The notes beneath the pieces are model-generated. The model made no database searches, was not told the DNA's origin, and saw only the letters and a list, made by a program, of their open reading frames with translations. The translations under genes were made by a program, and so were the position numbers. This document shows, in pieces, positions 21,139-55,862 of a stretch of 64,000 bases of DNA (position 1 is the first letter of the stretch; each line of letters begins with the position of its first letter). Source of the stretch: Rhodosporidiobolus odoratus (Eukaryota; Basidiomycota; Microbotryomycetes; Sporidiobolales; Sporidiobolaceae); assembly GCA_034387635.1 (NCBI GenBank), contig JAOANU010000026.1:1-64000 (forward strand). The letters are read 5' to 3'.

Positions 21139-21309
21139 CGAGGCGCGAAGGAAAATGGGCCGAAAATCGAGACGCGACCCTTCGTCTCGACACGCCAGCG
21201 CGTCCTTTCCCCTCTCTCTTTCCTGCATATCCCCCCTCCACTCTTCTCTGCTCCTGGTCACCATCTACACTCTTTAGCAACCTCTAGCGCACTCTCTGTA
21301 TCTCCCATT

Positions 21310-34559: not shown

Positions 34560-34879
34560 GACGCTGGTATCTAACCGCACCGAAGTTGCTGTCTTGGAGA
34601 ATATATTGAGTAGCTTCCAATTCTTCCGCTTGCCAATGCGGATCACTTGGTGGCCCGCGTCTCCATGCTCGGCGAGTGTAGTCTCTTGAACGGAATGACC
34701 TTCAAAAAGGGCTTGCCTCGTTTTCTTGTCCTTGATTTTCCCTTGCTCTTGCTCTCGGACAGTCTGCCTCCTTTCCCACACGCTGTGTTGTTTACTTCTG
34801 CTATCGCACTCTCCCTCGTGACGCCCCTTCGCTCTCTTCAGACATCGCTTTAGTCGCGCCTTTGAGTTTTCTTTGCAAT

Positions 34880-35328
34880 CTGCAACAACGATTGAGTACC
34901 AGCCGCGTCCATAGTCAGTGAGGAATTCTGAAAACGGTGTACGGAGTTATAAGGTACCTCTGTCCAATGTTGGTAGCCGACAGGCCCGCAAGAACGCAGG
35001 TGAAGGAGAAAAAGGAAACGAATGAGCAGCAACGAAACAGCAAAGACGCGAGGACAGTAAGTCCCCCTGAAGTCCCTGCCTCGGCGCATGATCCCCTTCC
35101 TAGTCAAGTTCTCGAGCATGACGGGGCTGTCACTATGTAAGCGGACGAAGGACGAGAAGAGATTCGGGAGCAACGTCAACCTCGCCATTACCTCCCACAG
35201 TAGTCTCGGTTGTCGTTCCGTCCCGCTGCTCTCAGCGCCTCCAATACTTGGCCACTTGGTCAACCACCACGAGGGGCGTGCAGAGTATGCTGCGGTCAAA
35301 AGGGCGAGTTTGGCAGTGGGTTATTCTT
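34880..35328 (-). repeat. Diverged outer extension of the large inverted repeat, left
   Basis: The reverse complement of this segment resembles 55210-55610 with many substitutions and indels: GCCGAGGCAG, CAGGGGGACT, CTTTTTCTCCTTCACC, GGCCTGTCG and TTGGACAGAG occur in the same order. A frame reading RFLFLLHLRSCGPVGY here parallels RLLFLLHHLFTYGPVDY on the right side. 34560-34880 has no supported gene. Confidence 0.75.
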
Positions 35329-36823
35329 GGGATATTCGAGTAAGGCGGGCGCCCGGTGAAAGAGCCGACCTGGAGGTAGCATCGCGGCGTTCGAGCGTAG
35401 GCGGACAGGAGAAGGCTCGATTCGGCATAGCGGCGCAGCGCGTCTGCAGCGCAGCAGTCTGAGGTCGACTGGGAAGCTAAGGTGGATAGGACCGGGAAAG
35501 CCGCGGAGGGAGGTCGAGGGCGACGACGACGACGACCGCAAAGACGGCGAACATTGCAGAGTGGTCGAGGAGCAGGAGCAGAGCAGGTCGTGAGAGGGAT
35601 GCAAGGGGTCAAGACGCGGGGTGACTCTTGAACACGAAGATCGGTCGCTAAGCGAAGTTGAGCGAGGGGGCGGGAGAGGTGATTCTACTTGACCTCTCGC
35701 TGATCCGACGTCCTGAGCTGCTCGTTGGGATTTACTAGATGCGTTTGATCAGTGCGCCGTCACCCAAGTCGACTAGCCCAACTCCGCCGACCTCTACGTC
35801 CGCCATCCCGACTGCCTTCTCCTGTCATCGGATCTCGGCGAGGGTGCTCTTGTAAGCCTCAAGAAACGGACAGGATGAAGGGAACCCTGACGTACACCAT
35901 GCCCAACCTAGCGAACTCCGCCATCTCAGCAAGAATGCGACGTGACGCCGACATCGACCTAACAAGCGCCCTTGCGAAATGGGTTCAACGGCCACGCCTG
36001 GGGTTTGCTGCCAACATGAAGGCTGAGCTGGAGCAGGTCATGGTGCTAAGGCGAGGTGCATGTCGAGGGAAGAGAAAGTGATGCTGGAGGACGGCGGTGA
36101 GACGCGTTGGAGGGGTCAGAGCGAGCTGCGTCGCACCATGTCGTCGGTGTCCTCAACTTCCTCTCGGCTGGGTGAAGAGGTGGAGAGAGCGATGAAGTTG
36201 AGCGATGAAGTCGAGGAGAAGGAAGAGAGCGAGCGAGCGAGCGAAGGAGACAAAGGTGGGGCTGAATGAAGGACTCAGGTGAGGCAATCTGCCTTTCCTG
36301 TTTGACTCTCGAGGTCAAAGCGGGTTGCAGTAACGACATGAGCGATGAAGACGCACGAGGAGGAATCGGCGGGCCGTTTACCAGACGTCCACCACCTGCT
36401 TAGGGGGAACAGAGTTACTGAGACTTCCTACAAATCCCCAGCTATCTCTACAGCTTGCACCGGCGACAGGAGATGTTGATGCTGCACCGCTACCGTCTCC
36501 TTCACTCCGCCTCGACTTCTCGCCGCCGCCGCCGTTTATCCCTTCTCATCCTCGTCCTCTATCGGGGTATTTGGGATTTTTCTAAAATACTATTCAACTT
36601 TTCCTACCCTCTCCCATGGCCCAACACTGCTCAAGGCTGCTGGATGGGGTGCTGCTCACGACGACCAGCCATCTATTTTGTCTCTCCCCCTGGCATCGAC
36701 TCTGCTCGGTCTATTGGAAGGGGATGAGCTGCTCTCTCTTGCTTCCTTTCATCTCGCTCGCGAGATACTACTCATCCTCGTACCCGCTTTCCATACACCC
36801 ACTCACTCACACTCACATACAAC

Positions 36824-38581
36824 ATGCTCTCTACTATCTCCGCTTCTCTCTCTGCTTCTTCCCTCTTCACCGGGGGCGCCTACGTGGCCCTCACCGCCCT
36901 CAACGGCATTCCCTCTACCTTCACCACTACCGGCACTGTCATCAACCAGCTCCCGGCTCTCAGTTTTGACTCGTTCGACTCGAACGCACTCCTCAACGCG
37001 CTCGTCAAAACTATCGGAGGCGAGATTGGCGCTGGTTTGGAGGGTGCAGGTGAGTCACACACTTCCGTAGCTGCTCTCTGCATCAAGGCTGACTCCATCA
37101 CGCCTTGCTTCCTCTCATCAGCTCCCGTCCCCTCCATCGTCGGCAATGTCGACGCTTACACCCCAATCGACAACGAGCACGGCCTCGCCAACAGGGCGAT
37201 CCCCGAGTACGTCACTCCTGAGCAGCTCGTCCAGGCCGTCTGGCCGGGTCCTGTCAAGGTTGGCACCGTCAAGGCCAAGTCCGGCTTCGCCCAGGAGCTC
37301 GTCGGCAAACTTGGCTTGAAGGGTTCCAATGGTGTGCTCCGCTGGCTTTCTTCTGCGGACCCCTGCGACCTTGAGCTAACCCTCATATCGGATCCGCAGG
37401 CAAGTCCCGTGGTCAAGCCGTCTCGCCCGTCGAGAGGCAGTCCGCCAATGACCCCTCGGCCATTCCCGCAATCGAGGTCAAGACGATTGCCAGCGGTCAC
37501 ATTGCTGGCTGTTCTTCCTCGGGATGCATTGCTGAAGTCGCCAGTTTCACTGTATGTTTATCCCATTCTCCGCTTTCATTGTCTGCCCGCGAGTCAAAAG
37601 CTCATTTTACCTTTCCTCACGTCACAGCTTTCCCTCCCCCTGATCAAGAGCGGCTCGGCTATCACCTGCGCCTACGCCGGCATCGTCGACGCTGTGAGCA
37701 CCAGCGTCGACCAGGATGGCGACAAGGTTACCGGTGCCACCACTTCGACCTCGTCCACCAACTCTTCTCTTGTCTACAACACCTCCCCTGTCGGCCCGAT
37801 CAACAGGACTCAAGTCCCGCACATTGACGCTTGTGACGCCCTCAAGCAGAGGCACCGCGATGACGCCTACGCTCGTCTCGAGGGCCGGGACATCAATCCT
37901 CGTGTCCCCGCCTCCGAAGGGCACGACGAGGTCCCCTACTTTCAGTACCGCAACCTTCTCAAGACCAACAAGAAGAGGGTCGTCAAAGCTGTCGCCGTCG
38001 CCGCGGTGACCCCTCCCGTCTTTCCCCTCTGGAACCCTTACTCCCCGTCCTCAGCAAGCGACAATGACGCTCGTGCCGACTCGCTCGCCGAAGAGACCAT
38101 TAGTCAGTACGTCGAGGCCGACAACCTCTCGTTGGAAGACTTGGTGCCGGAGCTCGACGACCTCGTCGCCTACTTCTCCCCTGCCCTTCCCGCTCCTCAC
38201 CACCTCGAGCCCTCTTCCGCCGACGTTTTTGTCGAGGACAACATCGAATCTCGCACGGACAAAGCCGTGGTTCTGGTGGAAGACCTCGTCTCGGCCCTCG
38301 ATGAGCTCGTTGTCGAACCCTTCCTTCCCCTCCGCACTCCTCCTTCTCCTCCCGCCAGCGACTCTGCCGGTTCCTCCAGCCTCACCACGCCTCCTTCTAC
38401 TCCCGACGTCGAGTTGAAATTCTTCCCCTCGCTCTCCACCATTGACGTTGACGAGAATGAGGTCGAGGAGCGGGAGCAGGAGCGCTTCTTCAGCGACGAT
38501 GCCGAGCTCGCTCTCGATGAGTTGGACGAGCTCATGGAGAGCATGCTCTCGGAAATGGAGCAGGAGCAGGAGGAGCGCTAA
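36824..38581 (+). CDS. Uncharacterised gene A, left copy, 513 aa after splicing
   Basis: I do not recognise it. Exons 36824-37049, 37122-37331, 37400-37551 and 37628-38581 give 514 codons. The whole span also happens to stay open without splicing, but the spliced frame removes odd segments and restores IEVKTIASGHIAGCSSSGCI in exon 3. The N-terminus (MLSTISASLSASSLFTGGAYV) is hydrophobic and could be a signal peptide. The middle has two close Cys (GCSSSGC), a third in ITCAYAG and a Thr/Ser-rich patch. A basic spot NKKRVVKAV follows. The last 170 residues are strongly acidic with repeated LVPELDDLV / LVEDLVSALDELV / LALDELDELM units, ending EMEQEQEER. The second copy is at 51957-53714. Confidence 0.75.
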   Translation: MLSTISASLSASSLFTGGAYVALTALNGIPSTFTTTGTVINQLPALSFDSFDSNALLNALVKTIGGEIGAGLEGAGESHTSVAALCIKADSITPCFLSSAPVPSIVGNVDAYTPIDNEHGLANRAIPEYVTPEQLVQAVWPGPVKVGTVKAKSGFAQELVGKLGLKGSNGVLRWLSSADPCDLELTLISDPQASPVVKPSRPSRGSPPMTPRPFPQSRSRRLPAVTLLAVLPRDALLKSPVSLYVYPILRFHCLPASQKLILPFLTSQLSLPLIKSGSAITCAYAGIVDAVSTSVDQDGDKVTGATTSTSSTNSSLVYNTSPVGPINRTQVPHIDACDALKQRHRDDAYARLEGRDINPRVPASEGHDEVPYFQYRNLLKTNKKRVVKAVAVAAVTPPVFPLWNPYSPSSASDNDARADSLAEETISQYVEADNLSLEDLVPELDDLVAYFSPALPAPHHLEPSSADVFVEDNIESRTDKAVVLVEDLVSALDELVVEPFLPLRTPPSPPASDSAGSSSLTTPPSTPDVELKFFPSLSTIDVDENEVEEREQERFFSDDAELALDELDELMESMLSEMEQEQEER

Positions 38582-38940
38582 GGCGCTCTGTCCTCTCTAC
38601 ATTGTATTTGTTTGGTTTCGGCGGTTTCCGACAATCGCATCTTGTACGTTTCTGTCTCTCTTGTCCTTCTCTCGTCGGAGCTGCTCCTGACGCTTTGCAT
38701 GCTTGTAGAAGATCCTCAAGCAACACCATAGACGCCATCTCGACAACTCTGCCGCCATCACCCGTAGGTATCACTTGCGCCTCCCGACTCGACAATCTCC
38801 ACGGCAGTATCCTCCGCCTCTAACATTCCCCTCTTGTGCGGCACCTCTTCTCCTCGCCTCTCTGAGCCGACACTGGCCAGCAAGGACGCATACGCTGGCC
38901 ACAGACGACGCGACCGCCGGTCTAGCCAGGTCTTCCTCCA

Positions 38941-40754
38941 TGTCGACCTCGTCGTCCCAGGCGCCTCGATGGATCAAATCGTCGGCAACTCTTCGAGCCT
39001 TGGTTGCTCTCGGCCTACTCGAGCACCACGCCCACCTCGTCCCGCCGGAGACGCCGCGAAGAGACGCACCCAACCTTCTTTCCCTTTCTCTCCTCCCTTT
39101 ATCCCCTTCTTTCTTCTCACTTTCTAGCTTTCTGCATCTCCTCTCTCGTGCCCTCTTCCATCCTCCTGTCTAACCTCATTCCCTCTATCATCCTCCTGTC
39201 TTATCTCATCATTAGTCAGTCTACCTTCGCATTGTGTAGTTTACCCTCCTTGCCTGCTCTTCCCCTCGGCCTCGTATTTCGCACAAGGCATGCAATCATG
39301 TATACTCTACTCTTCCGTCACTGTAGTAGCGCACTGCGACACTACCCCCGTGCCTTCATCAGCCTGGACAGGGATCAGTGAGAAGGTATCCACCACTCTT
39401 GAGAAGGTCGCCGTCAATTACAACCACCAAGCGCGCTCAGCTGCGTTGCTTCTCGGAAGCTTGATGAAGGATCGCTCGGGAACGCTTGCAGAGTGCGCTA
39501 GTCGACTCGAACGCACGCGCTCACCTGGAGCCAATTCAGCTTTCGACTTAGGGCTGGGTTATGTATGTAATAGATAATTACCTACCGTAAAATAATTCCA
39601 CTTACATCGGTAAAATACCGACCCCCCGGAAAAAGGGTGGTAAAGAATGGTAAAATATGCCACTCTTCTCTTGCTCATCAGAGACTTCCTGAAAATTTCT
39701 TGGCTGTAGGCCGCATCCTATTGACCACGCAAGAGCCTACAAAGGTCATAGACGTGTCGGCATGGACGTGGGAGCCCTCACGGCGCATTGGTAGGAGGTT
39801 GGATAGATTGGTGGCCTGGTACAAATCGAGAGAGACCACATAAGTGTACAGCCGTATATGCAAGCGCATGACTGCAAATTGCAATCAATTTGTAATACTT
39901 TGTATTGAGACAAGTCTAATCAGCCCATCCAGGCCATACCTAGTTCTTTACCGTATTTTACCACCCTACTTTCATACCGCTCCGCCCTTGTGACCTGCTT
40001 ACCTCGGTAAGAAAAGTAAAATACATTTTGTACCCCACCCTATTTCGACTGTATGATGAGACACCTCTTCGGAAGTCGTATCAAGAGCCCTTCGTCGCTT
40101 CACCCTGGTCGCCTGCACACACGCCTCTTTCTCACACGGTGCAAGCGAGCAAAGGCAGTCAACGAGCATGGGACGAAGGCGGCAGAGGGCGTCCGCGGAA
40201 GAGTGTGGCTGTGAGCCAACGGAAAGGTGTTGGATTTTTTTCTTTCTTCCCGTCCGCCGGCAGCTGTCTTCTCGCTTGTCCTGACGTCCTCCTTCGCCAT
40301 CGTAGGCTTCATCGCTGGCATTTTGCTACTCCAGACACCACCATCGTCCATCAGCGTCCCGCCTACGGATCCAAATCATCGCGACGCTTCGAACTGCCTC
40401 TCCTTCTCTCTCCTTTTCCTTCGTCTTGTTGCACCGCACGCACATCTTCCCGGGTCCAGCTCAATGCCTTCGCCTACTTCGACCTCTTCAGTGCCACTGA
40501 GAAGTGTAAGAAGGGCCATGACGAGGCGGATGCTGATGCCGGAGCCTGAGGAGAGGATGTGGGAAAAAGCTAAGCCACGCATGAGGCAGTATAAACCTGT
40601 TTGCACGATGTACGAGGCCATTCGGGCTTCTTCCAAGATAGTACACATCCTGGACAAGTTTCGCCGCCGAAAGCTGAGTCTGCATAGAGCGGTAAGCGAG
40701 AGGCGACAAGATGTACGTCGGCCACCTTCACCGTCTGCTCGGAGATGGAGGTAG
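38941..40754 (+). pseudogene. Gene B, left copy: split by a hAT MITE and truncated at the arm edge
   Basis: The sequence equivalent to the right-hand gene B (49500-51036 and its unresolved 5' exons) is present in this arm. Its exon containing FRLYDET is cut by the insertion at 39549-40042. At 40571 homology ends, so the C-terminal exon is missing; the frame instead runs on into unrelated sequence to 40754. The transmembrane exon (VFSLVLTSSFAIVGFIAGIL) is intact. Upstream frames 38941-39540 (for example ATLRALVALGLLEHHAHLVP) may be 5' exons. Confidence 0.65.
39541..40050. mobile_element. hAT-type MITE, 494 bp, with 8-bp target duplication
   Basis: The insert 39549-40042 starts TAGGGCTGGGTTATG and ends ...CCCCACCCTA, whose reverse complement is TAGGGTGGGGTAC: short imperfect terminal inverted repeats of hAT style. 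It is flanked by TTTCGACT at 39541-39548 and 40043-40050. The matching place in the right arm (50990-50997) has a single AGTCGAAA, the empty site. Subterminal copies of GGTAAAATA/TATTTTACC occur inside, as in many hAT elements. There is no transposase frame. Confidence 0.93.
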
Positions 40755-40770
40755 AAAACCGCACCGCGTC

Positions 40771-43408
40771 TCATTCCCGCTTCGCTGCACCGCCGGCATC
40801 GCTCTCCACTAACCATAACAGCTCACGGACCTCTTTCATCATTCCTTTTCTCCATAGCCAGCCGCCGAACCTGAGGTCGAACAACTCGGCGCCGGCTTGC
40901 CCGCGCTCGAGGGTTTGCGCCAGGCGGATCCAGTTTCTACGAGGCGGAGGAATTGGCGATGCGGTACGAGGTGAAGGGAAGAGAAGGTATGAGCAGACGG
41001 CAAGAGAGTTCGAGGGTCGAAGAGACAGCATGTAGGGCAAAGGGTCAGCTAAGCGTGAAGCTACAGCGTCGCTGAAAGTACGCACCTCACACCTTCTTCT
41101 CCCAAGCCCCCTTGTTGACACACCCACGCACAGTACAGGCAGCTCAAAGTTGCGTCCGTATCTCGCCCTCCTACCCCACTCACCAATTCCGGCTTCAGCA
41201 AATCCCTGTGACCTTCCAGTGAAGGAAAGGTCAACACCGCACCGAGCGCCTCAAGTGCCCGAATTTCGGATTCGAGTGCCAACGGAAAGAGACGGAGACG
41301 AGTCTGGAGGAGGGAGAGAAGACGAGAGGGGGCGTAAAGGGCGAAGGTTGGTGCGCGAGAGGTGGAGGGGTAGGTCGACTCGATTCTGCTGTAGAGCTCT
41401 TCTGCCCGCTTCAACATCCTTCGTAGCTGTGGATGCTTCGCCTTACTGGCAGTTTCCGAGGGGCCGAACCCGAGAGGAGGCAAAGAATGCGCCAAATCCC
41501 ACGCTTCCTGCTCCAATTCCTCCCTCTTCCGCCTCTCCTCCGTTCCAGCCTTCCGATCCTCCCTGCACAAAATACACGCGCAAACAAACCCATGACCTCC
41601 CAGTTTCTTCTCACGCTCCTCGAGTCCTTCATAAGCGGGAGAAGCATATTCGATCGTAACTTCCTGCCCTGCTTCGAGGGTTTGGCGAGCGCGGAGGATG
41701 AAGAGGTTATGAGGGGGGGGTCCTAAAAAGGTATAGGATGAGGTTGGGAGACAGGAATGGTTGAGAGCGGAAGGACCGGGTGCGTCGTGTCCGCCAGGGG
41801 ACAGCGAGAGAGGGTAAAGGGCGAGGGAGGACGAGAAGGCCCCATTGCCATTGTCACCATCGACGTTGCCGGAGACGCCAGCTGTTGCATTAGGGGAGCA
41901 TGAAGGCCTGCCGGGCTCCGGAGCAGTTGAGAGGTCTTCGACGACGAACCCGTTGAACGTAACCGCGCCTTCGACCCATCCCTTCCCTGCCGGATTCTGA
42001 TCTTTCATCCCATCTCCCGGCCAAAGCTCGCCCAGCTTTTCCTCTACACTCTTCACCTCGTGCTCTCCGACGTAGGGAGAGGTTCGTTCCTGCGCCACGC
42101 TCCAGAGAGCCTCGGCAGCAGTCTCTACCACTGCAGGCGGATCGACGGTCTCCGTGAGGAGGTTCAAGCCAACGGTATGGCTCAGTCTCCCCCTTCCAGC
42201 GCCTGTAGCAGCAGCCAATGGCCGGCAAACCATCAGTAGGTCCCCTCTCTCCACTCTTTCCTTTGCCACAACCCCCCGCCCCCTGCCCTCCAATTCTCGT
42301 AGTTCCAGCTTCGACAAGGTCCAGTCTGCGACGTCCGGACGCTCGGGAGGGAGACTTGAGAGTACTAGAGCTTGTGCACGTAGGAAAATCTCACGGATCT
42401 TGTGCGGAGAGGGGCCGGATTGCTGTTCCTGCAGTCGTTCGGAGGCGTGGCGTGAGAGGTCGGAAGAGGCAGGAGATGGGGTTACCGTAGAGAGGAGTGG
42501 TGGAATGGATGAATAGTCTTGAAGAGCGTAGAGCGCGCGGGCTCGAGAGAGGATAAGCCGTTCGTGAAGGGCAGATGGCGGACGAACGGCGAGAGAAAGG
42601 GCGGCTTGGCTGGTGCGGAATGCGGAAGACGGCATGGAGAGAGCGAGGTAGGACTCGGAGAGGAGAGACAGTAGGTTTGCTTCGGAGTGCGGATCGGAGG
42701 AGGGCGTGGGTGAACCGGAGGACAAGGTGGACAAGGCCGCCTCGGCGCCGTCCTTGACCCGCAGCCATTTGCCATCTCGAGCTGCGTGCTCTGCCATAAA
42801 AAGTAGCTTGTCGACTGCTGGCGTGTCGGAGGCGGGCGGTGGCGATGCAGGGGGAGCCGGGAAGGAACGCTGCCGCAGGAGAGGGTCGCCGGGGTAGAGC
42901 CGGACAATGTGTGACGGAGTAGAGAGGCGCAGATAGTATCCTCCGTCTGATGTCGAATGTGGATCAGGGTTCAGAATCGCTGTTTGACAGTGAAAGAGAA
43001 GAAGCATCTTGTTGAGCAGACGGTGGGAGCGCAGAAATGCAGGAAAAAGGCGAACCAAATGCGCCTCCTACAGGGTACCATCCGTCCAGACCTTCCGACT
43101 CTTCATCTATGCGCTGAGGTACTCCATACAGCTGTACAGGCGCGACCCTCCCGTCTAGGTCCTCGACAGCGAAGCGGAGGGAAGAAAGTCGAAGGGGCGG
43201 GGTGAGGATGCGGACAACGAGCACTGAGGCTGAGGAACCAAGCATTGCGTCAGCCCATGTAGACAGCAGCAGGAAGGCAGTCCAGCGTACCAGTGCGAGC
43301 TACGTGGAGCCGAAGAGCCCCGCCAGGCGAGAGATCCACCTGTTGCAGCGTGTGCAACTTTGCCTCTGCGGGTGGTGGCACTACTGCATGTGGTGCACCT
43401 AGTACCAT
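40771..43408 (-). CDS. TPR-SET domain protein (SMYD/Set5-like lysine methyltransferase), 781 aa
   Basis: Minus-strand exons 43408-43291, 43223-43056, 42979-41086 and 40936-40771 sum to 782 codons. The N-terminal half has helix pairs of TPR type (AEHAARDGKWLRVKDGAEAAL, LSESYLALSMPSSAFRTSQA, ALYALQDYSSI). The SET domain starts at LRELEGRGRGVVAKERVERG, continues to ALNHSCLPTSSYTFLG (NHSC) and EAGQEVTIEYASPAY, and ends with the zinc-binding post-SET CACILC. It has no MYND finger. Such proteins methylate histone or ribosomal lysines using S-adenosylmethionine; the substrate here is unknown. A Pro/Asn/Gly-rich insert splits the SET domain. It is divergent to LIG1 with 276 bp between starts and lies inside the inverted-repeat spacer, its stop 200 bp from the left arm. 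Confidence 0.85.
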
Positions 43409-43684
43409 TTTCCTCGTGCGCTGTACTGCCTGTGTATCGAGTTGCTGTTCGCGGTTGACGAGGGTGGCATGTCGGTCGAGGGTTTTCTGGGGGTCGAGGA
43501 GAGGGAGAGGGAGAGGGAGAGGGAGAGGGAGAGCAGCGGGAGAGGGGCGGTCGAGTACCGCGTGACGGAGAGCGGACCAGTTTACGGTTTGAGCCAGACT
43601 AGCAGAGTCTCGAGTGTAGTCGAGCAGTGTAAAAGAGCTGGACAAGAACTACTGGCATTCTCCTCTTGCTCTCGCTGTGTCTTG

Positions 43685-46600
43685 ATGGCTAACAAAGTTA
43701 CGCAAGGACGCGCACCTGAACAATCCTCACTCAACAAGTTCCTCGGTACTAAAGACAGTCAGCCTCATCAGCGGTCACTCTCTGAATTTATCCCCCCCAC
43801 TCCTCCTCTTCCTCCTCATCAACAACCTCAACGCAATCCCTCACCAGGGCCGGCACCCAAGAAGGAACAGGATATGGACATAGACTCGGCAGCCAAGCGT
43901 ACGCCCAGTACAAGCCAGGTCCAAGCACTGCAGATGAGGTTGACATCCTCGCTCTCTCATGTTTCGATGTCACAGCCTCAACCAGCTCGACTAGCAAGAA
44001 GAAACGCGTCCTACCTCCCTCATCTGACTCGGAGGGAGAGGCTGACCAGGGCAAGCAAAGCAGCGAGAGCGGTACGTCCTCTTTCCTCTCATCGCGTCTC
44101 ATCGCGAAGCTCGCTGACATCGCTCGATCCGAATGCACAGACACGAAACGCCCATCGAAATCTCCCGCAAAGCTGCCTGAAAGCGATAAGGAGGAACAGG
44201 ACCCAGCCTCAACCCCGGCGAAGAAGAAACAGAAGACGGCTTCTTCTCCTGCTCCGACTGCGTCTTCGTCCTCCTCGAAACCTGCGCCCAAATCAACTAC
44301 CGTCTCCAAGTCTACCTCGAATGCGACACAAGGCGGAGCCAACAAGAAGGACAAACCCCCCGTCTCTTCCTTTTTTGCTCCCCGCTCGACCCAGCCTGTC
44401 GCCAAAGGCAAGGACAAGGGGAAGAGCAAGGCCAATAGTGATGACGAAGCAGAGCAGGAAAGGGATGGAAGTCCTGCGAGCGGAGAGGCCGAGGACGACG
44501 AGGAAGATAGCGACGAGGAAGAGGAGGAGGATGGAAAAGCTGCGGGCAAGATGTGCGCTTCGCCTCTCGTCTGAGAATCCCTTCTTTCCGAGATCTGTGC
44601 CACAGACACTGACGGCGTAAGAACCGTAGCGCCGACATCTTCTCCAAGGCGAAGTGGGGATCGCAAGGAAGTGACAAGAACGGCAAAGGCAGCGGCAGCA
44701 CGCATTGGAAGAAAGGCGAACCGTACGTTCCTCTTCGCTGCCTCCCCTCAGTGTTGTCATGTTCTGCGCGTTGGCGAAGAGGAGGAGATCGTGGGCGCAC
44801 GGAGCTGACTCGTACTCTGGTCCTTTCCCGTCCCGCCTTCTTCTACCATCCGCCTCTGCAGTGTCCCCTACGCCGCCCTCACTCACACTTTTTCGCGTAT
44901 CGCCGCCACGACGAAGCGTCTCGAAATCTCAGCGTACCTCACCGAGTTCCTCGTCGAGGTCATCGACAAGACGCCTGAAGATTTGGTCAAGGTTGTTTAT
45001 CTGTGTATCAACCGTGTGCGTTTTTATTCTGCCCTCGCTCTCCCTCTCCCGTGCTGGCAGCCTCCCGCATCCTTCACTTAAGCCACTGAGCTCCGCGAGA
45101 CACGCACCGCGCCTCCTATCGTATTGGATCTGATCTTCTCCACCTTGCATCGCACAACCCCCTCCTCCTACAGCTTGCGCCCGATTTCGCCTCCATCGAA
45201 CTGGGCATCGGCGAGCAACTCCTCCAAAAATCCATCGGCGAGTCCTTTGGCCGCACCCTCGCTCAAGTGAAAGCCGAGTACAAGAAAGTAGGCGATTTAG
45301 GGCAAGTGGCGTTGGATTCGAGGAATAGGCAGAGGACGCTGTTCAAGAGTAAACCATTGACGGTTAAGGGCGTGTTTGTCGAGCTGGAGAAGGTTGCGAA
45401 GAGTAGTGGGAAGGACGTGCGTTCCGTTTTCCGCACCTCCTGCCGGTGCTTCCTGGCTCACGAACTTTTCGCTTGCCCCTTCTATACCCTCTGCTTGCCA
45501 TGGTCTCACCTCTGTCAGTCGCAAACTCGCAAAGTCAACCTCATCAAGGGCCTCCTCGCCAAATGTGAAGGCGAAGAAACCAAGTTCCTGATCCGCAGTC
45601 TCGAAGGCAAACTTCGTATCGGTCTAGCCGAGAAAACCGTTCTCACCTCCCTCGCCCACGCGGCGGTCACGGCTGAGAGTCACGCTGGAGGAAAGAAGAG
45701 GTCGAGGGATAGCTTTGCGAGGAGTTTGGAGGAGGGGACTGAAGTGGTCAAGGCGGTTTTCAGTGAGATACCGAGTTATGACCTCGTTGTGCCGGCATTG
45801 CTGGAGAAGGGGGTTGCGGGGTTGAAGGAGGCTTGCTCGCTTACTCCGGGTAAGTGTTCTAGTCTCTCCGCTCTCGCCTCTTGCGGTCTGCTCCCGCTCA
45901 TGTCTCGCCCGCTGACCTCGATGATTCCCTGCAGGTATCCCGCTCAAGCCCATGCTTGCCAAGCCTACCAAGGCTATCTCCGAGGTCCTGGATCGGTTCG
46001 AGGGCAAGGACTTTACGTGCGAGTACAAGTACGACGGGGAGAGGGCACAGGTGCGTCACCGCTTTGCTCCGCCGTTCCTTCGCCCGTGTCAGCAATCTGC
46101 CTACTGCTGATTCAGGACCGGGCTCGGTGACCCGGCTGACAAACTGACCCCTTCTTCTCGCCACCCTTTCTGCTACTCTCCTTCTCTCGTAGATTCACTA
46201 CCTCGACAATGGCTCAATCAAGGTGTTCTCACGCAATTCCGAGGACATGACGGTTAAATACCCCGAATTCGTCACACAATTGCCTAAGGTGCGCTTCGTT
46301 ACCTCCTCGCGCACAACCCTGTACTGACCCTATAATGTCTCCTTGTAGTGCATTAAACCCAACACCACTTCGTTCGTTATCGATGCGGAAGCTGTTGCGT
46401 GGGACACGGAGGAACATCGCATGCTCGAATTCCAGAAGTTGTCGACGAGGAAGAGGAAGGATGTCAAGGCGGAGGATATCAAGGTCAAGGTTCACCTCTT
46501 TGCGTTCGATTTGCTGTATCTCAACGGCGAGGTGCGTTGTGCTTTTTCTTCTCCCTAGCGAGCTTCTCCCGCATGTGATCGAAGCTGACGAAATCGCTTC

Positions 46601-47769
46601 GTGTCGACATGCGTACAGCCTCTCCTCGACAAGAACCTCCGTCAACGCCGCGATCTCCTCCAAACCCACCTTCAACCTGTCGAAGGCGAATTCGCATATG
46701 CCACTTCGGAAGATGCCTCGACAGTCGATGAGATCCAGATCTTCCTTGATAAAAGTATCAAGGATGGATGTGAGGGATTGATGGTTAAGATGCTGGAGGG
46801 AGAAGGGGCCAGTTATGAACCTAGTAGGAGGAGTATTCATTGGTTGAAGGTCAGCTTCTCCCCCTCTCTCTTCTCGCTTTGTCGGTTTGATCACTGACCA
46901 ACCTCTGCATCTTCCCCACTGTTCCCTCGCCGTCGGTCCTGCCCTCGTACGTGACGACACTGATAGCTCAAGAAAGACTACCTTGCAGGCGTCGGCGACT
47001 CGTTCGACCTCGTCGTCATCGGTGCAGACTACGGCAAGGGCAAGCGCACCAACGTGTACGGAGCGTTCCACCTGGCGACGTATGACGCCGACAGTGGGAC
47101 GTACCAGATGGTGTGCAAGATCGGAACTGGGTTCTCCGATGAAGCCTTGAAGAGCCATTGGGAGACGCTGCACCCGTTCGTCGACCTCGTCCCTTCCACT
47201 CAGTCTCCTTGAACTCATCATCTCTTTTGTGTGCAGTCTTGAGCTGCAGCAGAAGAAAGCCTACTACGACACTGGCGACATCCCGACGAACAAGCTGCCG
47301 AACGTTTTCTTCGAAGCCAAGGTTGTCTGGGAAGTACTCGCTGCCGACCTTTCGCTGTCACCTATCTATCCAGCTGCCAAGGGTGCGTTTCCACTGCTCC
47401 TCTGGGCCTTCTACCCCGGCGAACCCAGTCTGCCCGAGCACTCACTGATCTATCTTTGCCCGGGGTTACGTAGGTCTCGCCGGCGAGCGTGGTATCTCGC
47501 TCCGTTTCCCCAGGTTCATCCGCACCAGGGACGACAAGGACGCTGAGCAGAGTACGGAACCCGAGTCAGTGCGTCCTCATTTCCCTCCTTCACTGTCCCA
47601 CCTGCCCCGACGTCCCTCGCTTCTATTTCAGACTGTCACTGACAAATTATGACTGTTCTGACAGATTGCCGATGCCTACCGCCGTCAAGCTATCCAGGCT
47701 GGAGGAGGGGCGGGTGGGAAGAAGGGAAAGAAGGGCGGAGGTGGTGGGGTGGACGATGGGTTCTGGTAA
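43685..47769 (+). CDS. LIG1: DNA ligase I (ATP-dependent), 15 exons, 907 aa
   Basis: Seals Okazaki fragments and repair nicks in the nucleus (CDC9 of yeast). Exons: 43685-43898, 43976-44071, 44141-44552, 44630-44722, 44862-45015, 45174-45416, 45519-45849, 45935-46050, 46193-46288, 46349-46531, 46619-46849, 46967-47175, 47237-47382, 47474-47568, 47665-47769 (908 codons). The N-terminal 240 residues are disordered with PCNA-box-like QSSLNKFL at residue 13, NLS-like KKKR and an acidic run. Then come the DNA-binding domain ([21 protein letters not shown]), the adenylation domain with active-site Lys in [10 protein letters not shown], motifs [27 protein letters not shown] and HWLKLKKDYL, and the OB domain ending in [13 protein letters not shown]. 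The tail is Gly/Lys rich and ends DDGFW. Introns run 52-154 nt. Confidence 0.97.
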
Positions 47770-49499
47770 AGTGGCGTGGGTGTTTCCGCTTGCATGTCGT
47801 AGGACTACGTGTGCTTGATGATCCAGCTTCTATCTACCTTTTGCGTCGACTGCGGGAGGCCGGCCGTGCTCGAGGTTGCAGAGTTCACGATGACCTTCGC
47901 AACTCGAAAAAAATGGTGCGCTTGCTCGCCTTTACAAGGGTGCGGCCGAAGCTGCCGGCCGTATGAGCGTGTCGAGTTGAGCAGGAGAGCTATGGGGAGC
48001 TATGGAAGCTTCAGGAGCCGTTGCAGCAGGAAACGCTCGACCCTCTTCGCCCCCGCCAAGACTCTAATCGGTATGCAGGAGCAAGCCGGAGAGCCAGCAC
48101 CACATCCTCTAGCACCCATCTCCGCCGCCCCATGTCACCACAGACAGGCGCCGCCGCCTCAAGACGATGAAGGCACGCCAACGGAGCCAGGATATCTCAA
48201 GGTCTATACTGGTAGGTTCAGCTGACTTGACAGCGCCATGTAAATGTACTGAGAGCAATTTGCCGAATAGCGGCTCAAGCTCTCATCGCTCTCGGCGGGA
48301 TGCCTCTTGGCCACCCCGCCCTTCAGCCCACTCGCGTACGCACTTTGTCCCTCCCGAATCCAATACCCGCCCGAAGGTTCAACCTAGAAGCTCGAATGGC
48401 TATAAACCTGGAGCTTTACGAGCAGCTAACATGGGTACAGATAAGTCATGGTGTCAGTTTAGCGCAAAAGTGCACGGGTCTGTTGCAGCGGTTTCTAAGC
48501 CCTCGGTAGGCGAGTCATCCGGTCAGTGTTGACGATGTACGTTAGCTCACGCAATCTCACCTTGGACCATAGCTTCCACCTATCAAGCGGCTCTACGCGT
48601 TTCTCATGCGGATAGCTACCCGGCATCAAGATATGAACCTGCTCCCTACTCCATTCCCAGAATCGGCCTTTCCCTCTCATTATCTGTTCAGGGCCATCCT
48701 CAAGCCTCGGTATCTCCCTGCGTCACTCTCAACGAAAGCCTGAGCCGCACACAGCCGCCCTTCCCATCCATCGCGCTCGCATTCTCATCTGCCTCGGCGA
48801 AAGAAAGTCGCTTCCCCACCTTGACAGCTTCCGCCATCCTTCTCCGCCTGTCGAAAACCCCAAAGGCAGACGGAGCTTCCGTTCCGTGCAAGCTTTGCCG
48901 CACTTGCAGAGCAGGTCAACATCCTTGCCGGTCCTTTTTCCTGCGATGAGATGGGTCATCAACCGCTCGCGCAGGCACAGAACAAGCCGAAGCTGAGGGA
49001 GGCGCGAGATAGCTGCAAGAGCACGAGCGGCTTGAGGGACTGAAGCCAGAAGAAGCTGGGCGATGGCGAAAGGAGACGCAGGTCGGGAACTTGGGGTGGG
49101 GAAGTCGTGGTTGGACACTTTGGCGCCGTATGTCGTTACCTTTGCATGGGCTTAAATGTGTATTGAGTGTTTTGCAACTGTTTGAGCTATCCAATGCTGG
49201 ATTTGAACGTACAATGCCTTCGAGAGAGGCCGTTGGGACGGATTGGGAAGGTCGCGAGTTTAAGGTCCGCTGGTATGGGAGTTGTGCACGTCCTTCAGAG
49301 CAGCAGCGGGGGCCCCTCGTACCTGTGGGATCTTTTCTGAGTGCAGGAATCGCGAACAGTAGCTCGCTCGCACACTGAGCACTCTCACCTCGGAAGCTTC
49401 CCTTATTTGAGCCGCGTGCTCCAGCTCGCAGACCCTGGTACTAATGAGGTTCCATTGCTCCTGAGTCTGCTGCGAAGTACTGCTAGCTGCTATATCACG
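47770..49499. other. Intergenic stretch with only weak coding signals
   Basis: After LIG1 there are short frames but no complete gene I can defend. A plus-strand frame from about 48260 to 48507 (AAQALIALGGMPLGHPALQP ... NLEARMAINLELYEQLTWV) looks protein-like and could be a last exon of a small gene with a first exon near 48010. A minus-strand frame 49118-48729 (SVPQAARALAAISRLPQLRL, two CxC-like Cys) is an alternative. Confidence 0.3.
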
Positions 49500-51036
49500 T
49501 TATTGCTGCGCCTTGGTTCGCTTCCTTTTCCCCCTTCCTAGCTCCGGGACTGGTGTGTTTTCCTTCTCGCCGCCTCGCCCTGCTCCTTCCGACTCACTAG
49601 GATCCACCGTTCCTGCCCTCGTGCTTCTGCTGCTCTCCGCCTTCCGCTCGGCTGGAGCTGGGAAGCCCGGAATGCCCATCTTCGCGAATAACTCTGCCTC
49701 ATCCACCACCCTGATTTCGCACAACTTGCTCTTGCCCGGTGACTTTGTCCACTTGACCGCCGGAGGTCTTTCTGCGGGTTCGAACGAGCACGAAGACGAT
49801 GCAGGGGGAACGGAAACGGGAATGAGGCGGTAGGTGGTGTGCGCGGTACTGGTTTTGCGAGGTGATGAAGGAGAGCGAGGGATGAAGGTACGGGTGCGCC
49901 TGGTTGGCGATCGATTCTCGGCGCGCGCTGAGTCAAGAGAGACGAGGAGATGGTCTGGGTCGACAGGCTGAGGCGTACTGGGGAGCTCGGTGAAGAGGAA
50001 AGGAGAAGGCGAATGAGCGGTTCTTGAAGGTGGACGTGAGGGACCGTCAACGGGTACTTGGATGTCGTCCTCCAGCTGCGCTCTTGAGCTTGAGGCAGCT
50101 CGCGAATGACGACGCCATTCGCCTGTCCAAGGCGACGCCGTGCCGGAGGGTAAAGCGTCCACGTCGATGTTCCGCTGAGCAACGGCAGCGCTGCCTACGG
50201 TCGATCCTGACGTGATACCGGCACTTGCTTCGGCGGATTGGGCGGGCGATAGGTTGTGGGACGAAGGGACGGATCGAGGAAGGTTGGACGACAAGGCGCC
50301 GACGGAGAGAAGAGGTGAAGAAAGCGGTCGGTCGGTATATTCTCCCTCTGTTTCATGTAGGGACAAAGTCAGGCTCCATGCGAAAATCAGGTCCCCCTAG
50401 CTTGTAGACGTACCGCTGAGCCCAGGGAATGCGTCTGACATCGCCCCTGCCTCATCTTTCTCATCCGCAGCTTTTTCCCACATCCTCTCCTCAGGCTCCG
50501 ACGTCAGCATCCGCCTCGTCATGGCCCTTCTTACACTTCTCAGTGGTACTGAAGAGGTCGAAGTAGGCGAAGGCATTGAGCTTGACCCGGGAAGATGTTC
50601 GTGCGGTGCAACAAGACGAAGGAAAAGGAGAGAGAAGGAGAGGCAGTTCGAAGCGTCGCGATGATTTGGATCCGTAGGCGGGACGCTGATGGACGATGGT
50701 GGTGTCTGGAGTAGCAAAATGCCAGCGATGAAGCCTACGATGGCGAAGGAGGACGTCAGGACAAGCGAGAAGACAGCTGCCGGCGGACGGGAAGAAAGAA
50801 AAAAATCCAACACCTTTCCGTTGGCTCACAGCCACACTCTTCCGCGGACGCCCTCTGCCGCCTTCGTCCCATGCTCGTTGACTGCCTTTGCTCGCTTGCA
50901 CCGTGTGAGAAAGAGGCGTGTGTGCAGGCGACCAGGGTGAAGCGACGAAGGGCTCTTGATACGACTTCCGAGGAGGTGTCTCATCATACAGTCGAAAGCT
51001 GAATTGGCTCCAGGTGAGCGCGTGCGTTCGAGTCGA
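49500..51036 (-). CDS. Uncharacterised gene B, right copy: single-pass membrane protein (5' exons unresolved)
   Basis: Three 3' exons fit in frame: 51036-50814, 50776-50414 (after a 37-nt intron) and 50347-49500. The product has a basic/Ser-Thr-rich segment (RLYDETPPRKSYQEPFVASP), then one transmembrane helix (VFSLVLTSSFAIVGFIAGILLL), and a long polar C-terminal part with PRSPSSPRKTS and a conserved-looking AELFAKMGIPGFPAP near the end. This may be a membrane or nuclear-envelope protein; no family recognised. The first two exons lie in the right arm; the coding sequence crosses the arm edge at 50469 and ends in the spacer, so this copy is intact where the left one is not. Upstream exons probably lie at 51040-51600 (for example ISEKVSTTLEKVAVNYNHQA). 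Confidence 0.65.
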
Positions 51037-54000
51037 CTAGCGCACTCTGCAAGCGTTCCCGAGCGATCCTTCATCAAGCTTCCGAGAAGCAACGCAGCTG
51101 AGCGCGCTTGGTGGTTGTAATTGACGGCGACCTTCTCAAGAGTGGTGGATACCTTCTCACTGATCCCTGTCCAGGCTGATGAAGGCACGGGGGTAGTGTC
51201 GCAGTGCGCTACTACAGTGACGGAAGAGTAGAGTATACATGCTTGCATGCCTTGTGCGAAATACGAGGCCGAGGGGAAAAGCAGGCAAGGAGGGTAAACT
51301 ACACAATGCGAAGGTAGACTGACTAATGATGAGATAAGACAGGAGGATGATAGAGGGAATGAGGTTAGACAGGAGGATGGAAGAGGGCACGATAGAGGAG
51401 ATGCAGAAAGCTAGAAAGTGAGAAGAAAGAAGGGGATAAAGGGAGGAGAGAAAGGGAAAGAAGGTTGGGTGCGTCTCTTCGCGATGTCTCCGGCGGGACG
51501 AGGTGGGCGTGGTGCTCGAGTAGGCCGAGAGCAACCAAGGCTCGAAGAGTTGCCGACGATTTGATCCATCGAGGCGCCTGGGACGACGAGGTCGACATGG
51601 AGGAAGACCTGGCTAGACCGGCGGTCGCGTCGTCTGTGGCCAGCGTATGCGTCCTTGCTGGCGAGTGTCGGCTCAGAGAGGCGAGGAGAAGAGGTGCCGC
51701 ACAAGAGGGGAATGTTAGAGGCGGAGGATACTGCCGTGGAGATTGTCGAGTCGGGAGGCGCAAGTGATACCTACGGGTGATGGCGGCAGAGTTGTCGAGA
51801 TGGCGTCTATGGTGTTGCTTGAGGATCTTCTACAAGCATGCAAAGCGTCAGGAGCAGCTCCGACGAGAGAAGGACAAGAGAGACAGAAACGTACAAGATG
51901 CGATTGTCGGAAACCGCCGAAACCAAACAAATACAATGTAGAGAGGACAGAGCGCCTTAGCGCTCCTCCTGCTCCTGCTCCATTTCCGAGAGCATGCTCT
52001 CCATGAGCTCGTCCAACTCATCGAGAGCGAGCTCGGCATCGTCGCTGAAGAAGCGCTCCTGCTCCCGCTCCTCGACCTCATTCTCGTCAACGTCAATGGT
52101 GGAGAGCGAGGGGAAGAATTTCAACTCGACGTCGGGAGTAGAAGGAGGCGTGGTGAGGCTGGAGGAACCGGCAGAGTCGCTGGCGGGAGGAGAAGGAGGA
52201 GTGCGGAGGGGAAGGAAGGGTTCGACAACGAGCTCATCGAGGGCCGAGACGAGGTCTTCCACCAGAACCACGGCTTTGTCCGTGCGAGATTCGATGTTGT
52301 CCTCGACAAAAACGTCGGCGGAAGAGGGCTCGAGGTGGTGAGGAGCGGGAAGGGCAGGGGAGAAGTAGGCGACGAGGTCGTCGAGCTCCGGCACCAAGTC
52401 TTCCAACGAGAGGTTGTCGGCCTCGACGTACTGACTAATGGTCTCTTCGGCGAGCGAGTCGGCACGAGCGTCATTGTCGCTTGCTGAGGACGGGGAGTAA
52501 GGGTTCCAGAGGGGAAAGACGGGAGGGGTCACCGCGGCGACGGCGACAGCTTTGACGACCCTCTTCTTGTTGGTCTTGAGAAGGTTGCGGTACTGAAAGT
52601 AGGGGACCTCGTCGTGCCCTTCGGAGGCGGGGACACGAGGATTGATGTCCCGGCCCTCGAGACGAGCGTAGGCGTCATCGCGGTGCCTCTGCTTGAGGGC
52701 GTCACAAGCGTCAATGTGCGGGACTTGAGTCCTGTTGATCGGGCCGACAGGGGAGGTGTTGTAGACAAGAGAAGAGTTGGTGGACGAGGTCGAAGTGGTG
52801 GCACCGGTAACCTTGTCGCCATCCTGGTCGACGCTGGTGCTCACAGCGTCGACGATGCCGGCGTAGGCGCAGGTGATAGCCGAGCCGCTCTTGATCAGGG
52901 GGAGGGAAAGCTGTGACGTGAGGAAAGGTAAAATGAGCTTTTGACTCGCGGGCAGACCATGAAAGAGGAGAATGGGATAAACATACAGTGAAACTGGCGG
53001 ATTCAGCAATGCAACCAGAGGAAGAACAGCCAGCAATGTGACCGCTGGCAATCGTCTTGACCTCGATTGCGGGAATGGCCGAGGGGTCATTGGCGGACTG
53101 CCTCTCGACGGGCGAGACGGCTTGACCACGGGACTTGCCTGCGAATCCGATATGAGGGTTAGCTCAAGGTCGCAGGGGTCCGCAGAAGAAAGCCAGCGGA
53201 GCACACCATTGGAACCCTTCAAGCCAAGTTTGCCGACGAGCTTCTGGGCGAAGCCGGACTTGGCCTTGACGGTGCCAACCTTGACAGGACCCGGCCAGAC
53301 GTCCTGGACGAGCTGCTCAGGAGTGACGTACTCGGGGATCGCCCTGTTGGCGAGGCCGTGCTCGTTGTCGATTGGGGTGTAAGCGTCGACATTGCCGACG
53401 ATGGAGGGGACGGGAGCTGATGAGAGGAAGCAAGGCGTAATGGAGTCAGCCTTGATGCAGAGAGCAGCTACGGAAGTGTGTGACTCACCTGCACCCTCCA
53501 AACCAGCGCCAATCTCGCCTCCGATAGTTTTGACGAGCGCGTTGAGGAGTGCGTTCGAGTCGAACGAGTCAAAACTGAGAGCCGGGAGCTGGTTGATGAC
53601 AGTGCCGGTAGTGGTGGGGGTAGAGGGAATGCCGTTGGGGGCGGTGAGGGCCACGTAGGCGCCCCCGGTGAAGAGGGAAGAAGCAGAGAGAGAAGCGGAG
53701 ATAGTAGAGAGCATGTTGTATGTGAGTGAGAGTGAGTGGGTGTGTGGAAAGCGGGTATGAGGATGAGTAGTATCTCGCGAGTGAGATGAAAGGAAGCAAG
53801 AGAGAGCAGCTCATCCCCTTCCAATAGACCGAGCAGAGTCGATGCCAGGGGGAGAGACAAAATAGATGGCTGGTCGTCGTGAGCAGCACCCCATCCAGCA
53901 GCCTTGAGCAGTGTTGGGCCATGGGAGAGGGTAGGAAAAGTTGAATAGTATTTTAGAAAAATCCCAAATACCCCGATAGAGGACGAGGATGAGAAGGGAT

Positions 54001-55209
54001 AAACGGCGGCGGCGGCGAGAAGTCGAGGCGGAGTGAAGGAGACGGTAGCGGTGCAGCATCAACATCTCCTGTCGCCGGTGCAAGCTGTAGAGATAGCTGG
54101 GGATTTGTAGGAAGTCTCAGTAACTCTGTTCCCCCTAAGCAGGTGGTGGACGTCTGGTAAACGGCCCGCCGATTCCTCCTCGTGCGTCTTCATCGCTCAT
54201 GTCGTTACTGCAACCCGCTTTGACCTCGAGAGTCAAACAGGAAAGGCAGATTGCCTCACCTGAGTCCTTCATTCAGCCCCACCTTTGTCTCCTTCGCTCG
54301 CTCGCTCGCTCTCTTCCTTCTCCTCGACTTCATCGCTCAACTTCATCGCTCTCTCCACCTCTTCACCCAGCCGAGAGGAAGTTGAGGACACCGACGACAT
54401 GGTGCGACGCAGCTCGCTCTGACCCCTCCAACGCGTCTCACCGCCGTCCTCCAGCATCACTTTCTCTTCCCTCGACATGCACCTCGCCTTAGCACCATGA
54501 CCTGCTCCAGCTCAGCCTTCATGTGAGCAGCAAACCCCAGGCGTGGCCGTTGAACCCATTTCGCAAGGGCGCTTGTTAGGTCGATGTCGGCGTCACGTCG
54601 CATTCTTGCTGAGATGGCGGAGTTCGCTAGGTTGGGCATGGTGTACGTCAGGGTTCCCTTCATCCTGTCCGTTTCTTGAGGCTTACAAGAGCACCCTCGC
54701 CGAGATCCGATGACAGGAGAAGGCAGTCGGGATGGCGGACGTAGAGGTCGGCGGAGTTGGGCTAGTCGACTTGGGTGACGGCGCACTGATCAAACGCATC
54801 TAGTAAATCCCAACGAGCAGCTCAGGACGTCGGATCAGCGAGAGGTCAAGTAGAATCACCTCTCCCGCCCCCTCGCTCAACTTCGCTTAGCGACCGATCT
54901 TCGTGTTCAAGAGTCACCCCGCGTCTTGACCCCTTGCATCCCTCTCACGACCTGCTCTGCTCCTGCTCCTCGACCACTCTGCAATGTTCGCCGTCTTTGC
55001 GGTCGTCGTCGTCGTCGCCCTCGACCTCCCTCCGCGGCTTTCCCGGTCCTATCCACCTTAGCTTCCCAGTCGACCTCAGACTGCTGCGCTGCAGACGCGC
55101 TGCGCCGCTATGCCGAATCGAGCCTTCTCCTGTCCGCCTACGCTCGAACGCCGCGATGCTACCTCCAGGTCGGCTCTTTCACCGGGCGCCCGCCTTACTC
55201 GAATATCCC
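50469..55209. repeat. Right arm of large inverted repeat (4,741 bp)
   Basis: Reverse complement of 35329-40571 without the hAT MITE. The inner edge is at 50469 (shared AGCTTTTTCCC, then divergence) and the outer edge at 55209 (shared GAATATCCC). It holds gene A (51957-53714) and the 5' part of gene B. The stretch 53715-55209 mirrors 35329-36823 and has no confident gene. Confidence 0.95.
51957..53714 (-). CDS. Uncharacterised gene A, right copy, 513 aa after splicing
   Basis: Mirror of 36824-38581 with the same four exons (53714-53489, 53416-53207, 53138-52987, 52910-51957). Coding differences from the left copy that I see are L-to-P and F-to-P near residue 30, A-to-D (VWPG context), E-to-K (SGFAQ context) and V-to-S after GCIAE, plus two synonymous changes there. 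All lie in exons 1-3; exon 4 (954 nt) appears identical. Both copies keep intact frames and splice sites, so both may be functional. Confidence 0.75.
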   Translation of the reverse strand: MLSTISASLSASSLFTGGAYVALTAPNGIPSTPTTTGTVINQLPALSFDSFDSNALLNALVKTIGGEIGAGLEGAGESHTSVAALCIKADSITPCFLSSAPVPSIVGNVDAYTPIDNEHGLANRAIPEYVTPEQLVQDVWPGPVKVGTVKAKSGFAQKLVGKLGLKGSNGVLRWLSSADPCDLELTLISDSQASPVVKPSRPSRGSPPMTPRPFPQSRSRRLPAVTLLAVLPLVALLNPPVSLYVYPILLFHGLPASQKLILPFLTSQLSLPLIKSGSAITCAYAGIVDAVSTSVDQDGDKVTGATTSTSSTNSSLVYNTSPVGPINRTQVPHIDACDALKQRHRDDAYARLEGRDINPRVPASEGHDEVPYFQYRNLLKTNKKRVVKAVAVAAVTPPVFPLWNPYSPSSASDNDARADSLAEETISQYVEADNLSLEDLVPELDDLVAYFSPALPAPHHLEPSSADVFVEDNIESRTDKAVVLVEDLVSALDELVVEPFLPLRTPPSPPASDSAGSSSLTTPPSTPDVELKFFPSLSTIDVDENEVEEREQERFFSDDAELALDELDELMESMLSEMEQEQEER

Positions 55210-55610
55210 ACTTCCAGATTTTCCCTTTCGAGCGAGCGCGGGATACTCTACGTGCCCTCCTCACGGTCGAACAAGTGGCTGCGTTTTGTAGGCGTGACAG
55301 AAGCGGGACCTGACGACAAGCGAGATCACATTACGAGATGAGGCTGCAAGTTGGTTGCTCTCGAGTTTCTTCGCTTCAGTCGACCGATAACAGCCCTTTC
55401 ATGTCTGAGACTCTCACAGCCAGCCGCCGAGGCAGATTGTCCAGGGGGACTCATGGCTACCGCGTATCTGCTGTTTTCGTGCTGTTCATCCGTTTACTTT
55501 TTCTCCTTCACCACCTCTTTACCTACGGACCTGTCGACTACGTCGGACAGAGAAACCCGGGCAGAGGTACTTTGGCACTTACGCTATCGCTTCGAAAGCT
55601 CTGGCTCTAA
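55210..55610 (+). repeat. Diverged outer extension of the large inverted repeat, right
   Basis: Counterpart of 34880-35328 (inverted). Directly past the 55209 edge, CTTTCGAGCG...GATACTCTACGTGCCCTCCT aligns with CTTTTGACCG...ATACTCTGCACGCCCCTCGT on the left with many differences, and similarity continues to about 55600. Frames here (HFQIFPFERARDTLRALLTV at about 55200) may belong to a small gene that spans the edge, frame-broken on the left. 55611-55862 is GAAAG-rich with no gene. Confidence 0.7.
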
Positions 55611-55862
55611 GGCCCTTCCTGTCTGGCTCAAGACGCGGGTGCTACTGAATCTTGGTCGCAGATTGCAAGGGAAAGGAATCAAAGGCACGACTACATATCC
55701 GTCCTGAAGAGAGCGCAAGGGTATCAAGAAAGACGAAGTGATCACAGAAGGAAGAGACTGGCGCTATCAGCACGCGTAGAAAGAGGGAAAGAAAGAGTGT
55801 GCAAGAGAGAAACGAAGGACAAGAACCGGAGAAACAAAAAAAGAAACGACGCAACGCCTCCC

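What the first reader, a model, noticed from the sequence alone, without database searches (positions are those of the whole stretch)
35329..55209. Large inverted repeat: two 4,741-bp arms around a 9.9-kb spacer with DNA ligase I
Arms 35329-40571 and 50469-55209 are reverse complements. After removing a 494-bp transposon plus its 8-bp duplication, both are exactly 4,741 bp, so no other net indel has accumulated. The spacer holds LIG1, a SET methyltransferase gene and the end of gene B. Arms this similar can recombine and flip the spacer, and they keep each other uniform by gene conversion. Inverted duplication around an essential replication gene is unusual; it could also be a hotspot for rearrangement or a sex-, ploidy- or strain-specific structure.
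Basis: seen in the sequence. Interest (0 to 1): 0.88.

Follow-up and report, generated by a model that had tools for sequence, protein, structure and literature searches.

The report
Old inverted gene pair kept identical
In a red-yeast genome, two mirror-image copies of one gene flank the DNA ligase gene; they look like old copies whose central 4.7 kb was later re-copied from one to the other, which is real but mostly a familiar kind of structure.

Summary
Arms 35328-40571 and 50469-55210 are reverse complements with 31 substitutions in 4,742 bp (99.3%); the only indel is a 494-bp hAT-like insert with its 8-bp duplication in arm A. The host is a red yeast next to Rhodosporidiobolus odoratus (LIG1 96% identical). 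Each arm holds one 513-codon gene without a Pfam match; the spacer holds a SET gene and LIG1.

Divergence changes about 50-fold at one point. So this is an old inverted duplication with a homogenised core, best explained by gene conversion, not one recent duplication.

Two more pairs show similar mosaics: an inverted pair of 3-hydroxyacyl-CoA dehydrogenase genes on the same contig and a same-strand pair of arm-gene relatives on contig C10.

Spacer flipping is possible but untested. Nothing found ties the locus to sex: STE3 and the homeodomain hit lie on other contigs. Ordinary in kind; a clean fungal example.

The parts
34708..35316 (+). decayed outer extension of arm A
   Evidence: local alignment to 55859-55211 (reverse): 578 columns, 73.5% identity, score 330 against a maximum of 51 in 396 other windows of the contig; whole-genome search finds only itself and that partner
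35328..40571 (+). arm A core (4,742 bp plus 502 bp of insert and duplication)
36824..38581 (+). arm gene, copy A: exons 36824-37049, 37122-37331, 37400-37551, 37628-38581; 513 codons; no Pfam match
   Evidence: splice sites read by eye and joined frame open to one stop; homologue P0001 in R. odoratus
39541..40050 (.). 494-bp hAT-like insert 39549-40042 between two copies of TTTCGACT; termini TAGGGCTGGG / TAGGGTGGGG; one partial relative (81%, 110 bp) on contig C2
   Evidence: the assignment to hAT is by recalled features (8-bp duplication, termini), no transposase
40572..50468 (.). spacer, 9,897 bp
   Evidence: no homology between its two ends (score 32, shuffle maximum 42); two pieces tested are single copy
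41064..43067 (-). SET-domain gene (open frame of 668 codons)
   Evidence: PF00856, E 4e-06; homologues in four named Rhodosporidiobolus species, 39-42%
44920..47766 (+). LIG1 (DNA ligase I), conserved part; the N-terminal exons start upstream and were not modelled
   Evidence: PF04675 E 3.6e-34 and PF01068 E 2.1e-18; solved DNA ligase 1 chains; 96% to R. odoratus
50469..55210 (-). arm B core
51957..53714 (-). arm gene, copy B: differs from copy A at 7 codons, 5 of them amino-acid changes
55211..55859 (-). decayed outer extension of arm B

Best explanation
An inverted duplication of one gene with its flanks arose around the SET-LIG1 pair long ago and was at least 5.3 kb long. Its outer ends have decayed, while the 4.7 kb next to the spacer was later overwritten from one copy to the other, most likely by homologous-recombination gene conversion between the arms. 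Shown: inverted arms; a step from about 70% to 100% identity at the outer edge; identity in introns and intergenic DNA as well as exons; uneven residual differences. Inferred: that gene conversion rather than another copying route did it; that it happened more than once; that crossing over between the arms can flip the spacer.
For: The outer flanks continue in register at 73.5% over 578 columns of a gapped local alignment (score 330, maximum 51 in 396 real windows; maximum 47 in 30 shuffles), or 62-70.5% per 200 bp in a global alignment, and in the whole genome match only each other. Jukes-Cantor distance 0.33 against 0.0066 in the core. 22 of the 31 core differences lie outside exons and the introns and flanks are as alike as the exons. 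Differences are uneven: 17 of 31 within 825 bp, one identical run of 1,294 bp; after merging close pairs still 14 of 25 (0.00085 of 20,000 uniform placements) and 0.009 for the run. Similar mosaics in two other pairs of this genome.
Against: One assembly, no reads, no second strain and no outgroup DNA, so conversion events are not seen as such. The 825-bp window was chosen after seeing the data, and uneven mutation could give the same pattern. The core is richer in G+C (57.9%) than the outer flanks (52-54%), as biased conversion predicts, but the unduplicated spacer is just as rich (57.2%), so this is no support. Copy number in R. odoratus is unknown. An older and a younger duplication landing in register could mimic the step, though less simply.
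Confidence: 0.85

Rival explanations
1. A single recent inverted duplication of 4,742 bp; the 31 differences are mutations since then.
For: 99.3% identity and no indel but the insert; no homology at the inner edges.
Against: The outer flanks are homologous, in register and far more diverged; differences within the core are uneven.
Confidence: 0.08
2. The arms recombine with crossing over often enough that both spacer orientations exist in the species, so the locus is a recurrent inversion. This adds to the best explanation and does not exclude it.
For: Arm length and identity fit; no recognised gene was found across an inner junction; human inversions between inverted repeats are often recurrent (PMC3961182, passages).
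Against: No direct evidence; only one assembly and one orientation seen.
Confidence: 0.3
3. The inverted repeat is an assembly artefact.
For: I had no reads.
Against: 31 substitutions and an insertion with target duplication separate the arms; inner flanks are unrelated and outer flanks are diverged partners; the two spacer pieces tested are single copy.
Confidence: 0.03

Closest known systems
Large inverted repeats with arm-to-arm gene conversion (mammalian X/Y palindromes; human inverted repeats that mediate inversions, such as the one carrying FLNA and EMD)
   Same: Multi-kilobase inverted arms above 99% identity with a spacer that holds genes; homogenisation younger than the duplication.
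   Different: Fungal, on a contig without a known link to sex; inversion polymorphism not tested; decayed continuation visible at one side of each arm. Sources: PMC8981503 (start of abstract in a listing), PMC3961182 (passages); the FLNA-EMD evolutionary literature is otherwise recalled.
Inverted repeats around pheromone genes in MAT A1 of red yeasts
   Same: Same order of fungi; inverted gene copies ascribed to intra-allelic gene conversion (PMC3236058, passages).
   Different: No pheromone motif in the arms; STE3 and homeodomain on other contigs.
Second inverted pair on the same contig, C26:88694-94343 / 134186-139397
   Same: Inverted, mosaic of alike and decayed blocks, found only at these two places by the genome search.
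   Different: 40-kb spacer; most alike block 2,005 of 2,070 aligned bases (96.9%); decayed stretches inside as well as outside; holds a 3-hydroxyacyl-CoA dehydrogenase gene.

Membership tests
Large inverted repeat maintained by gene conversion | Multi-kilobase inverted arms of about 99% identity around a single-copy spacer | tested here: met
   spacer by two test pieces
Large inverted repeat maintained by gene conversion | Identity includes introns and intergenic DNA | tested here: met
   22 of 31 differences outside exons; about 1.5 kb on each side of the gene included
Large inverted repeat maintained by gene conversion | Homogenisation is younger than the duplication | tested here: met
   outer flanks far more diverged than the core
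Large inverted repeat maintained by gene conversion | Arms within a species more alike than between species (concerted evolution) | tested here: inconclusive
   copies A and B share 508 of 513 residues, copy A and the one R. odoratus protein 318 of 345; the number of copies in R. odoratus is unknown
Large inverted repeat maintained by gene conversion | Both spacer orientations occur | not testable with these tools
   one assembly, no reads
Red-yeast MAT A1 pheromone inverted repeat | Pheromone precursor genes in the arms | tested here: not met
   no match in the arms to the recalled short pheromone motifs or CAAX-type endings searched; the arm gene codes 513 residues
Red-yeast MAT A1 pheromone inverted repeat | Next to the pheromone receptor STE3 | tested here: not met
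   STE3 on C17; window on C26, all 275 kb of it; linkage between contigs cannot be judged
Pair of transposable elements | Arms belong to a dispersed many-copy repeat or hold transposon genes | tested here: not met
   two copies plus two partial 74-76% matches (counts are lower bounds); no transposon domain among the frames scanned

The most novel reading that the evidence does not exclude
This red yeast homogenises paralogue pairs often: inverted and same-strand pairs of non-mating genes are mosaics of re-copied blocks, so conversion between copies (with error-prone repair, seen as an excess of close double substitutions) is a main force on its gene families, and the LIG1-SET interval flips back and forth in the R. 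odoratus lineage.
Probability: 0.15. Interest if true: 0.55.

Novelty: new member of a known kind. Interest (0 to 1): 0.33.

Why it matters
It is a clear natural example, outside the mating-type genes, of homogenisation between inverted copies in a basidiomycete yeast, with a visible tract edge from which tract length and age can be measured. It warns that arm identity is not a clock for the duplication. If both spacer orientations exist, LIG1 and the SET gene sit in a recurrently inverted segment, which would matter for maps and assemblies of these yeasts.

Tried and rejected
Rejected: one recent duplication (outer flanks); selection on the protein as the cause of identity (introns and intergenic DNA equally alike); a transposon pair; a mating-type structure; horizontal transfer of the arm gene, which I suspected because the SET search returned no R. 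odoratus protein, but LIG1 is 96% identical to R. odoratus too, so ordinary descent fits. The missing R. odoratus SET protein stays unexplained (the search takes only candidates of 0.55-1.75 times the query length and scored 7,997 of them).

Led nowhere: structure model of P0001 (mean pLDDT 40.1); Pfam on the arm gene; eight paper searches, whose listings held nothing on this locus; most subscription papers are not in that library. GC-biased conversion: not supported. R. odoratus LIG1 lies on a 10,767-bp contig and its arm-gene homologue, partial, on a 2,331-bp contig, as an assembly broken at the same repeats might show; I could not see that assembly and do not count it.

Part-counts: of 149 open frames of 100 aa or more reaching beyond 30 kb, 106 were scanned; 43 were dropped beforehand (frames inside the arms, nested frames, frames beyond about 60.8 kb). 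The placement tests used 4,741 instead of 4,742 bp. The codon scan was trained on the window's own SET, LIG1, RNR, SAM decarboxylase and GCIP-like frames and covers frames of 80 aa or more, so short exons can be missed; the arm gene was not in its training set.

Full report
The repeat is real. Self-comparison of the window gives two inverted matches, 35328-39548 / 55210-50990 and 40043-40571 / 50997-50469. Base by base the arms differ by 31 substitutions over 4,742 bp. The only indel inside the core is 502 bp in arm A: a 494-bp element with imperfect TAGGG termini and an 8-bp duplication, TTTCGACT, features that I recall as typical of hAT elements. In the 24.8-Mb, 45-contig assembly the tested part of the core has two copies and two partial matches at 74-76% on contig C10. 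The two spacer pieces tested have one copy each.

The organism is a Sporidiobolales red yeast close to Rhodosporidiobolus odoratus: the joined LIG1 exons are 96% identical to R. odoratus, then 86% to R. poonsookiae (best 120 of 451 hits listed; lineage). The spacer holds a SET-domain gene on the minus strand and LIG1 on the plus strand. By locus tags and contig lengths the two genes are neighbours in R. ruineniae (002768 and 002767) and R. lusitaniae (002628 and 002629), and four numbers apart in R. poonsookiae (006819 and 006815). So the gene pair is shared by several species of the genus; whether the arms are is not known.

Each arm carries one gene of four exons and 513 codons, pointing towards the spacer. 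It has no Pfam match. A search of 5.8 billion proteins returned one homologue, a partial R. odoratus protein on a 2,331-bp contig (7,991 candidates scored; the query still contained translated introns, and distant relatives can be missed). 318 of 345 aligned residues are identical to copy A. Copies A and B differ at 7 codons, 5 of them amino-acid changes, all within codons 26-192. At the three changed residues that the R. odoratus protein covers (114, 134, 192) copy B has the R. odoratus residue and copy A does not, so there the change was probably in copy A, which also bears the insert.

Left of 35328 and right of 55210 the sequences go on matching in register for about 600 bp: 578 aligned columns at 73.5% in a gapped local alignment, 62-70.5% per 200 bp in a global one. 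The local score is 330, against a maximum of 51 in 396 other windows of the contig and 47 in 30 shuffles. A whole-genome search with the left flank finds itself and two pieces of the right flank, nothing else. At the inner edges there is no such continuation (score 32, maximum of 100 shuffles 42). Jukes-Cantor distance is 0.33 outside and 0.0066 in the core. The simplest account of two ages so far apart in one repeat is that the core was re-copied later. Introns and about 1.5 kb on each side of the gene share the identity (22 of 31 differences lie outside exons), so selection on the protein is no alternative.

Within the core the differences are uneven: 17 of 31 fall in 825 bp and one identical run is 1,294 bp long (0.0003 and 0.0012 of 20,000 uniform placements; the window size was chosen after seeing the data). 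Close double substitutions are in excess (6 pairs within 3 bp against 0.59 expected). With those merged, 14 of 25 events in 825 bp and the same run still give 0.00085 and 0.009. Several tracts, or uneven mutation, would explain this; error-prone repair synthesis could explain the close pairs. Both are inference. G+C is 57.9% in the core, 52-54% in the outer flanks, but also 57.2% in the spacer, so biased conversion is not supported.

Similar mosaics occur elsewhere. On the same contig (all 275,011 bases compared with themselves) an inverted pair at 88694-94343 / 134186-139397 was found only at these two places (88694-94000 searched). It varies from 45% to 99% per 200 bp, and its most alike block (2,005 of 2,070 aligned bases) holds a 3-hydroxyacyl-CoA dehydrogenase domain (PF00725, E 6e-15). 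On contig C10 two relatives of the arm gene, 67 kb apart on one strand, share a 1.2-kb block at 97% that covers the upstream region and about the first 30 codons, while the part further downstream is at 35-59%. I examined one contig and one pair elsewhere, not a genome-wide sample, so how common this is stays open.

Mechanism. Most likely, breaks or stalled forks in one arm are repaired from the other by homologous recombination, mostly without crossing over, copying long tracts that stop where homology ends on the inner side and at a diverged stretch on the outer side. Crossing over would invert the 9.9-kb spacer. A codon-usage scan shows no recognised gene across an inner junction (short exons can be missed), so inversion might be tolerated. 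Neither event is observed directly.

Known relatives. Inverted repeats with arm-to-arm conversion are known from mammalian sex chromosomes (PMC8981503, start of abstract in a listing). Human inverted repeats, one inversion among them carrying FLNA and EMD, often mediate recurrent inversions (PMC3961182, passages). In red yeasts, inverted repeats around MAT A1 pheromone genes have been described and ascribed to intra-allelic conversion (PMC3236058, passages). This locus shows no sign of that: STE3 is on C17, the one Homeobox_KN hit on C20, and no pheromone motif was found in the arms; linkage between contigs cannot be judged. Eight paper searches listed nothing on this locus.

Verdict: the structure is confirmed, its history is better explained than first stated, and it is ordinary in kind.

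Noticed in passing
G000:C26:88694-94343 and 134186-139397 (in L012, L013, L017): A second inverted pair on the same contig, 45-99% identity per 200 bp, with a 3-hydroxyacyl-CoA dehydrogenase domain in its most alike block.
   Followed up: partly
L004 and L005 (G000:C10, 926.5 kb and 993.9 kb): Two same-strand relatives of the arm gene share a 97% block of 1.2 kb over the upstream region and start while the rest is diverged; the L005 copy reads V where L004 has the first M.
   Followed up: partly
window 36012-40539: Six close pairs of substitutions (within 3 bp) among 31 differences between the arms, 0.59 expected; possibly a mark of error-prone repair.
   Followed up: partly
window 4858-10403: Cluster of short direct and inverted repeats (766 bp at 92.8% inverted) with 24 copies of GATT at 7027-7122, perhaps transposon remains.
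   Followed up: no
window 10912-22051: About 11 kb without an open frame of 150 aa or more, with the window's lowest G+C (48-53%) and two Rfam tRNA matches; nature unknown.
   Followed up: no
P0012 and P0001 (R. odoratus): LIG1 sits on a 10.8-kb contig and the partial arm-gene homologue on a 2.3-kb contig, as if that assembly broke at the same repeats; its SET protein was not returned.
   Followed up: partly
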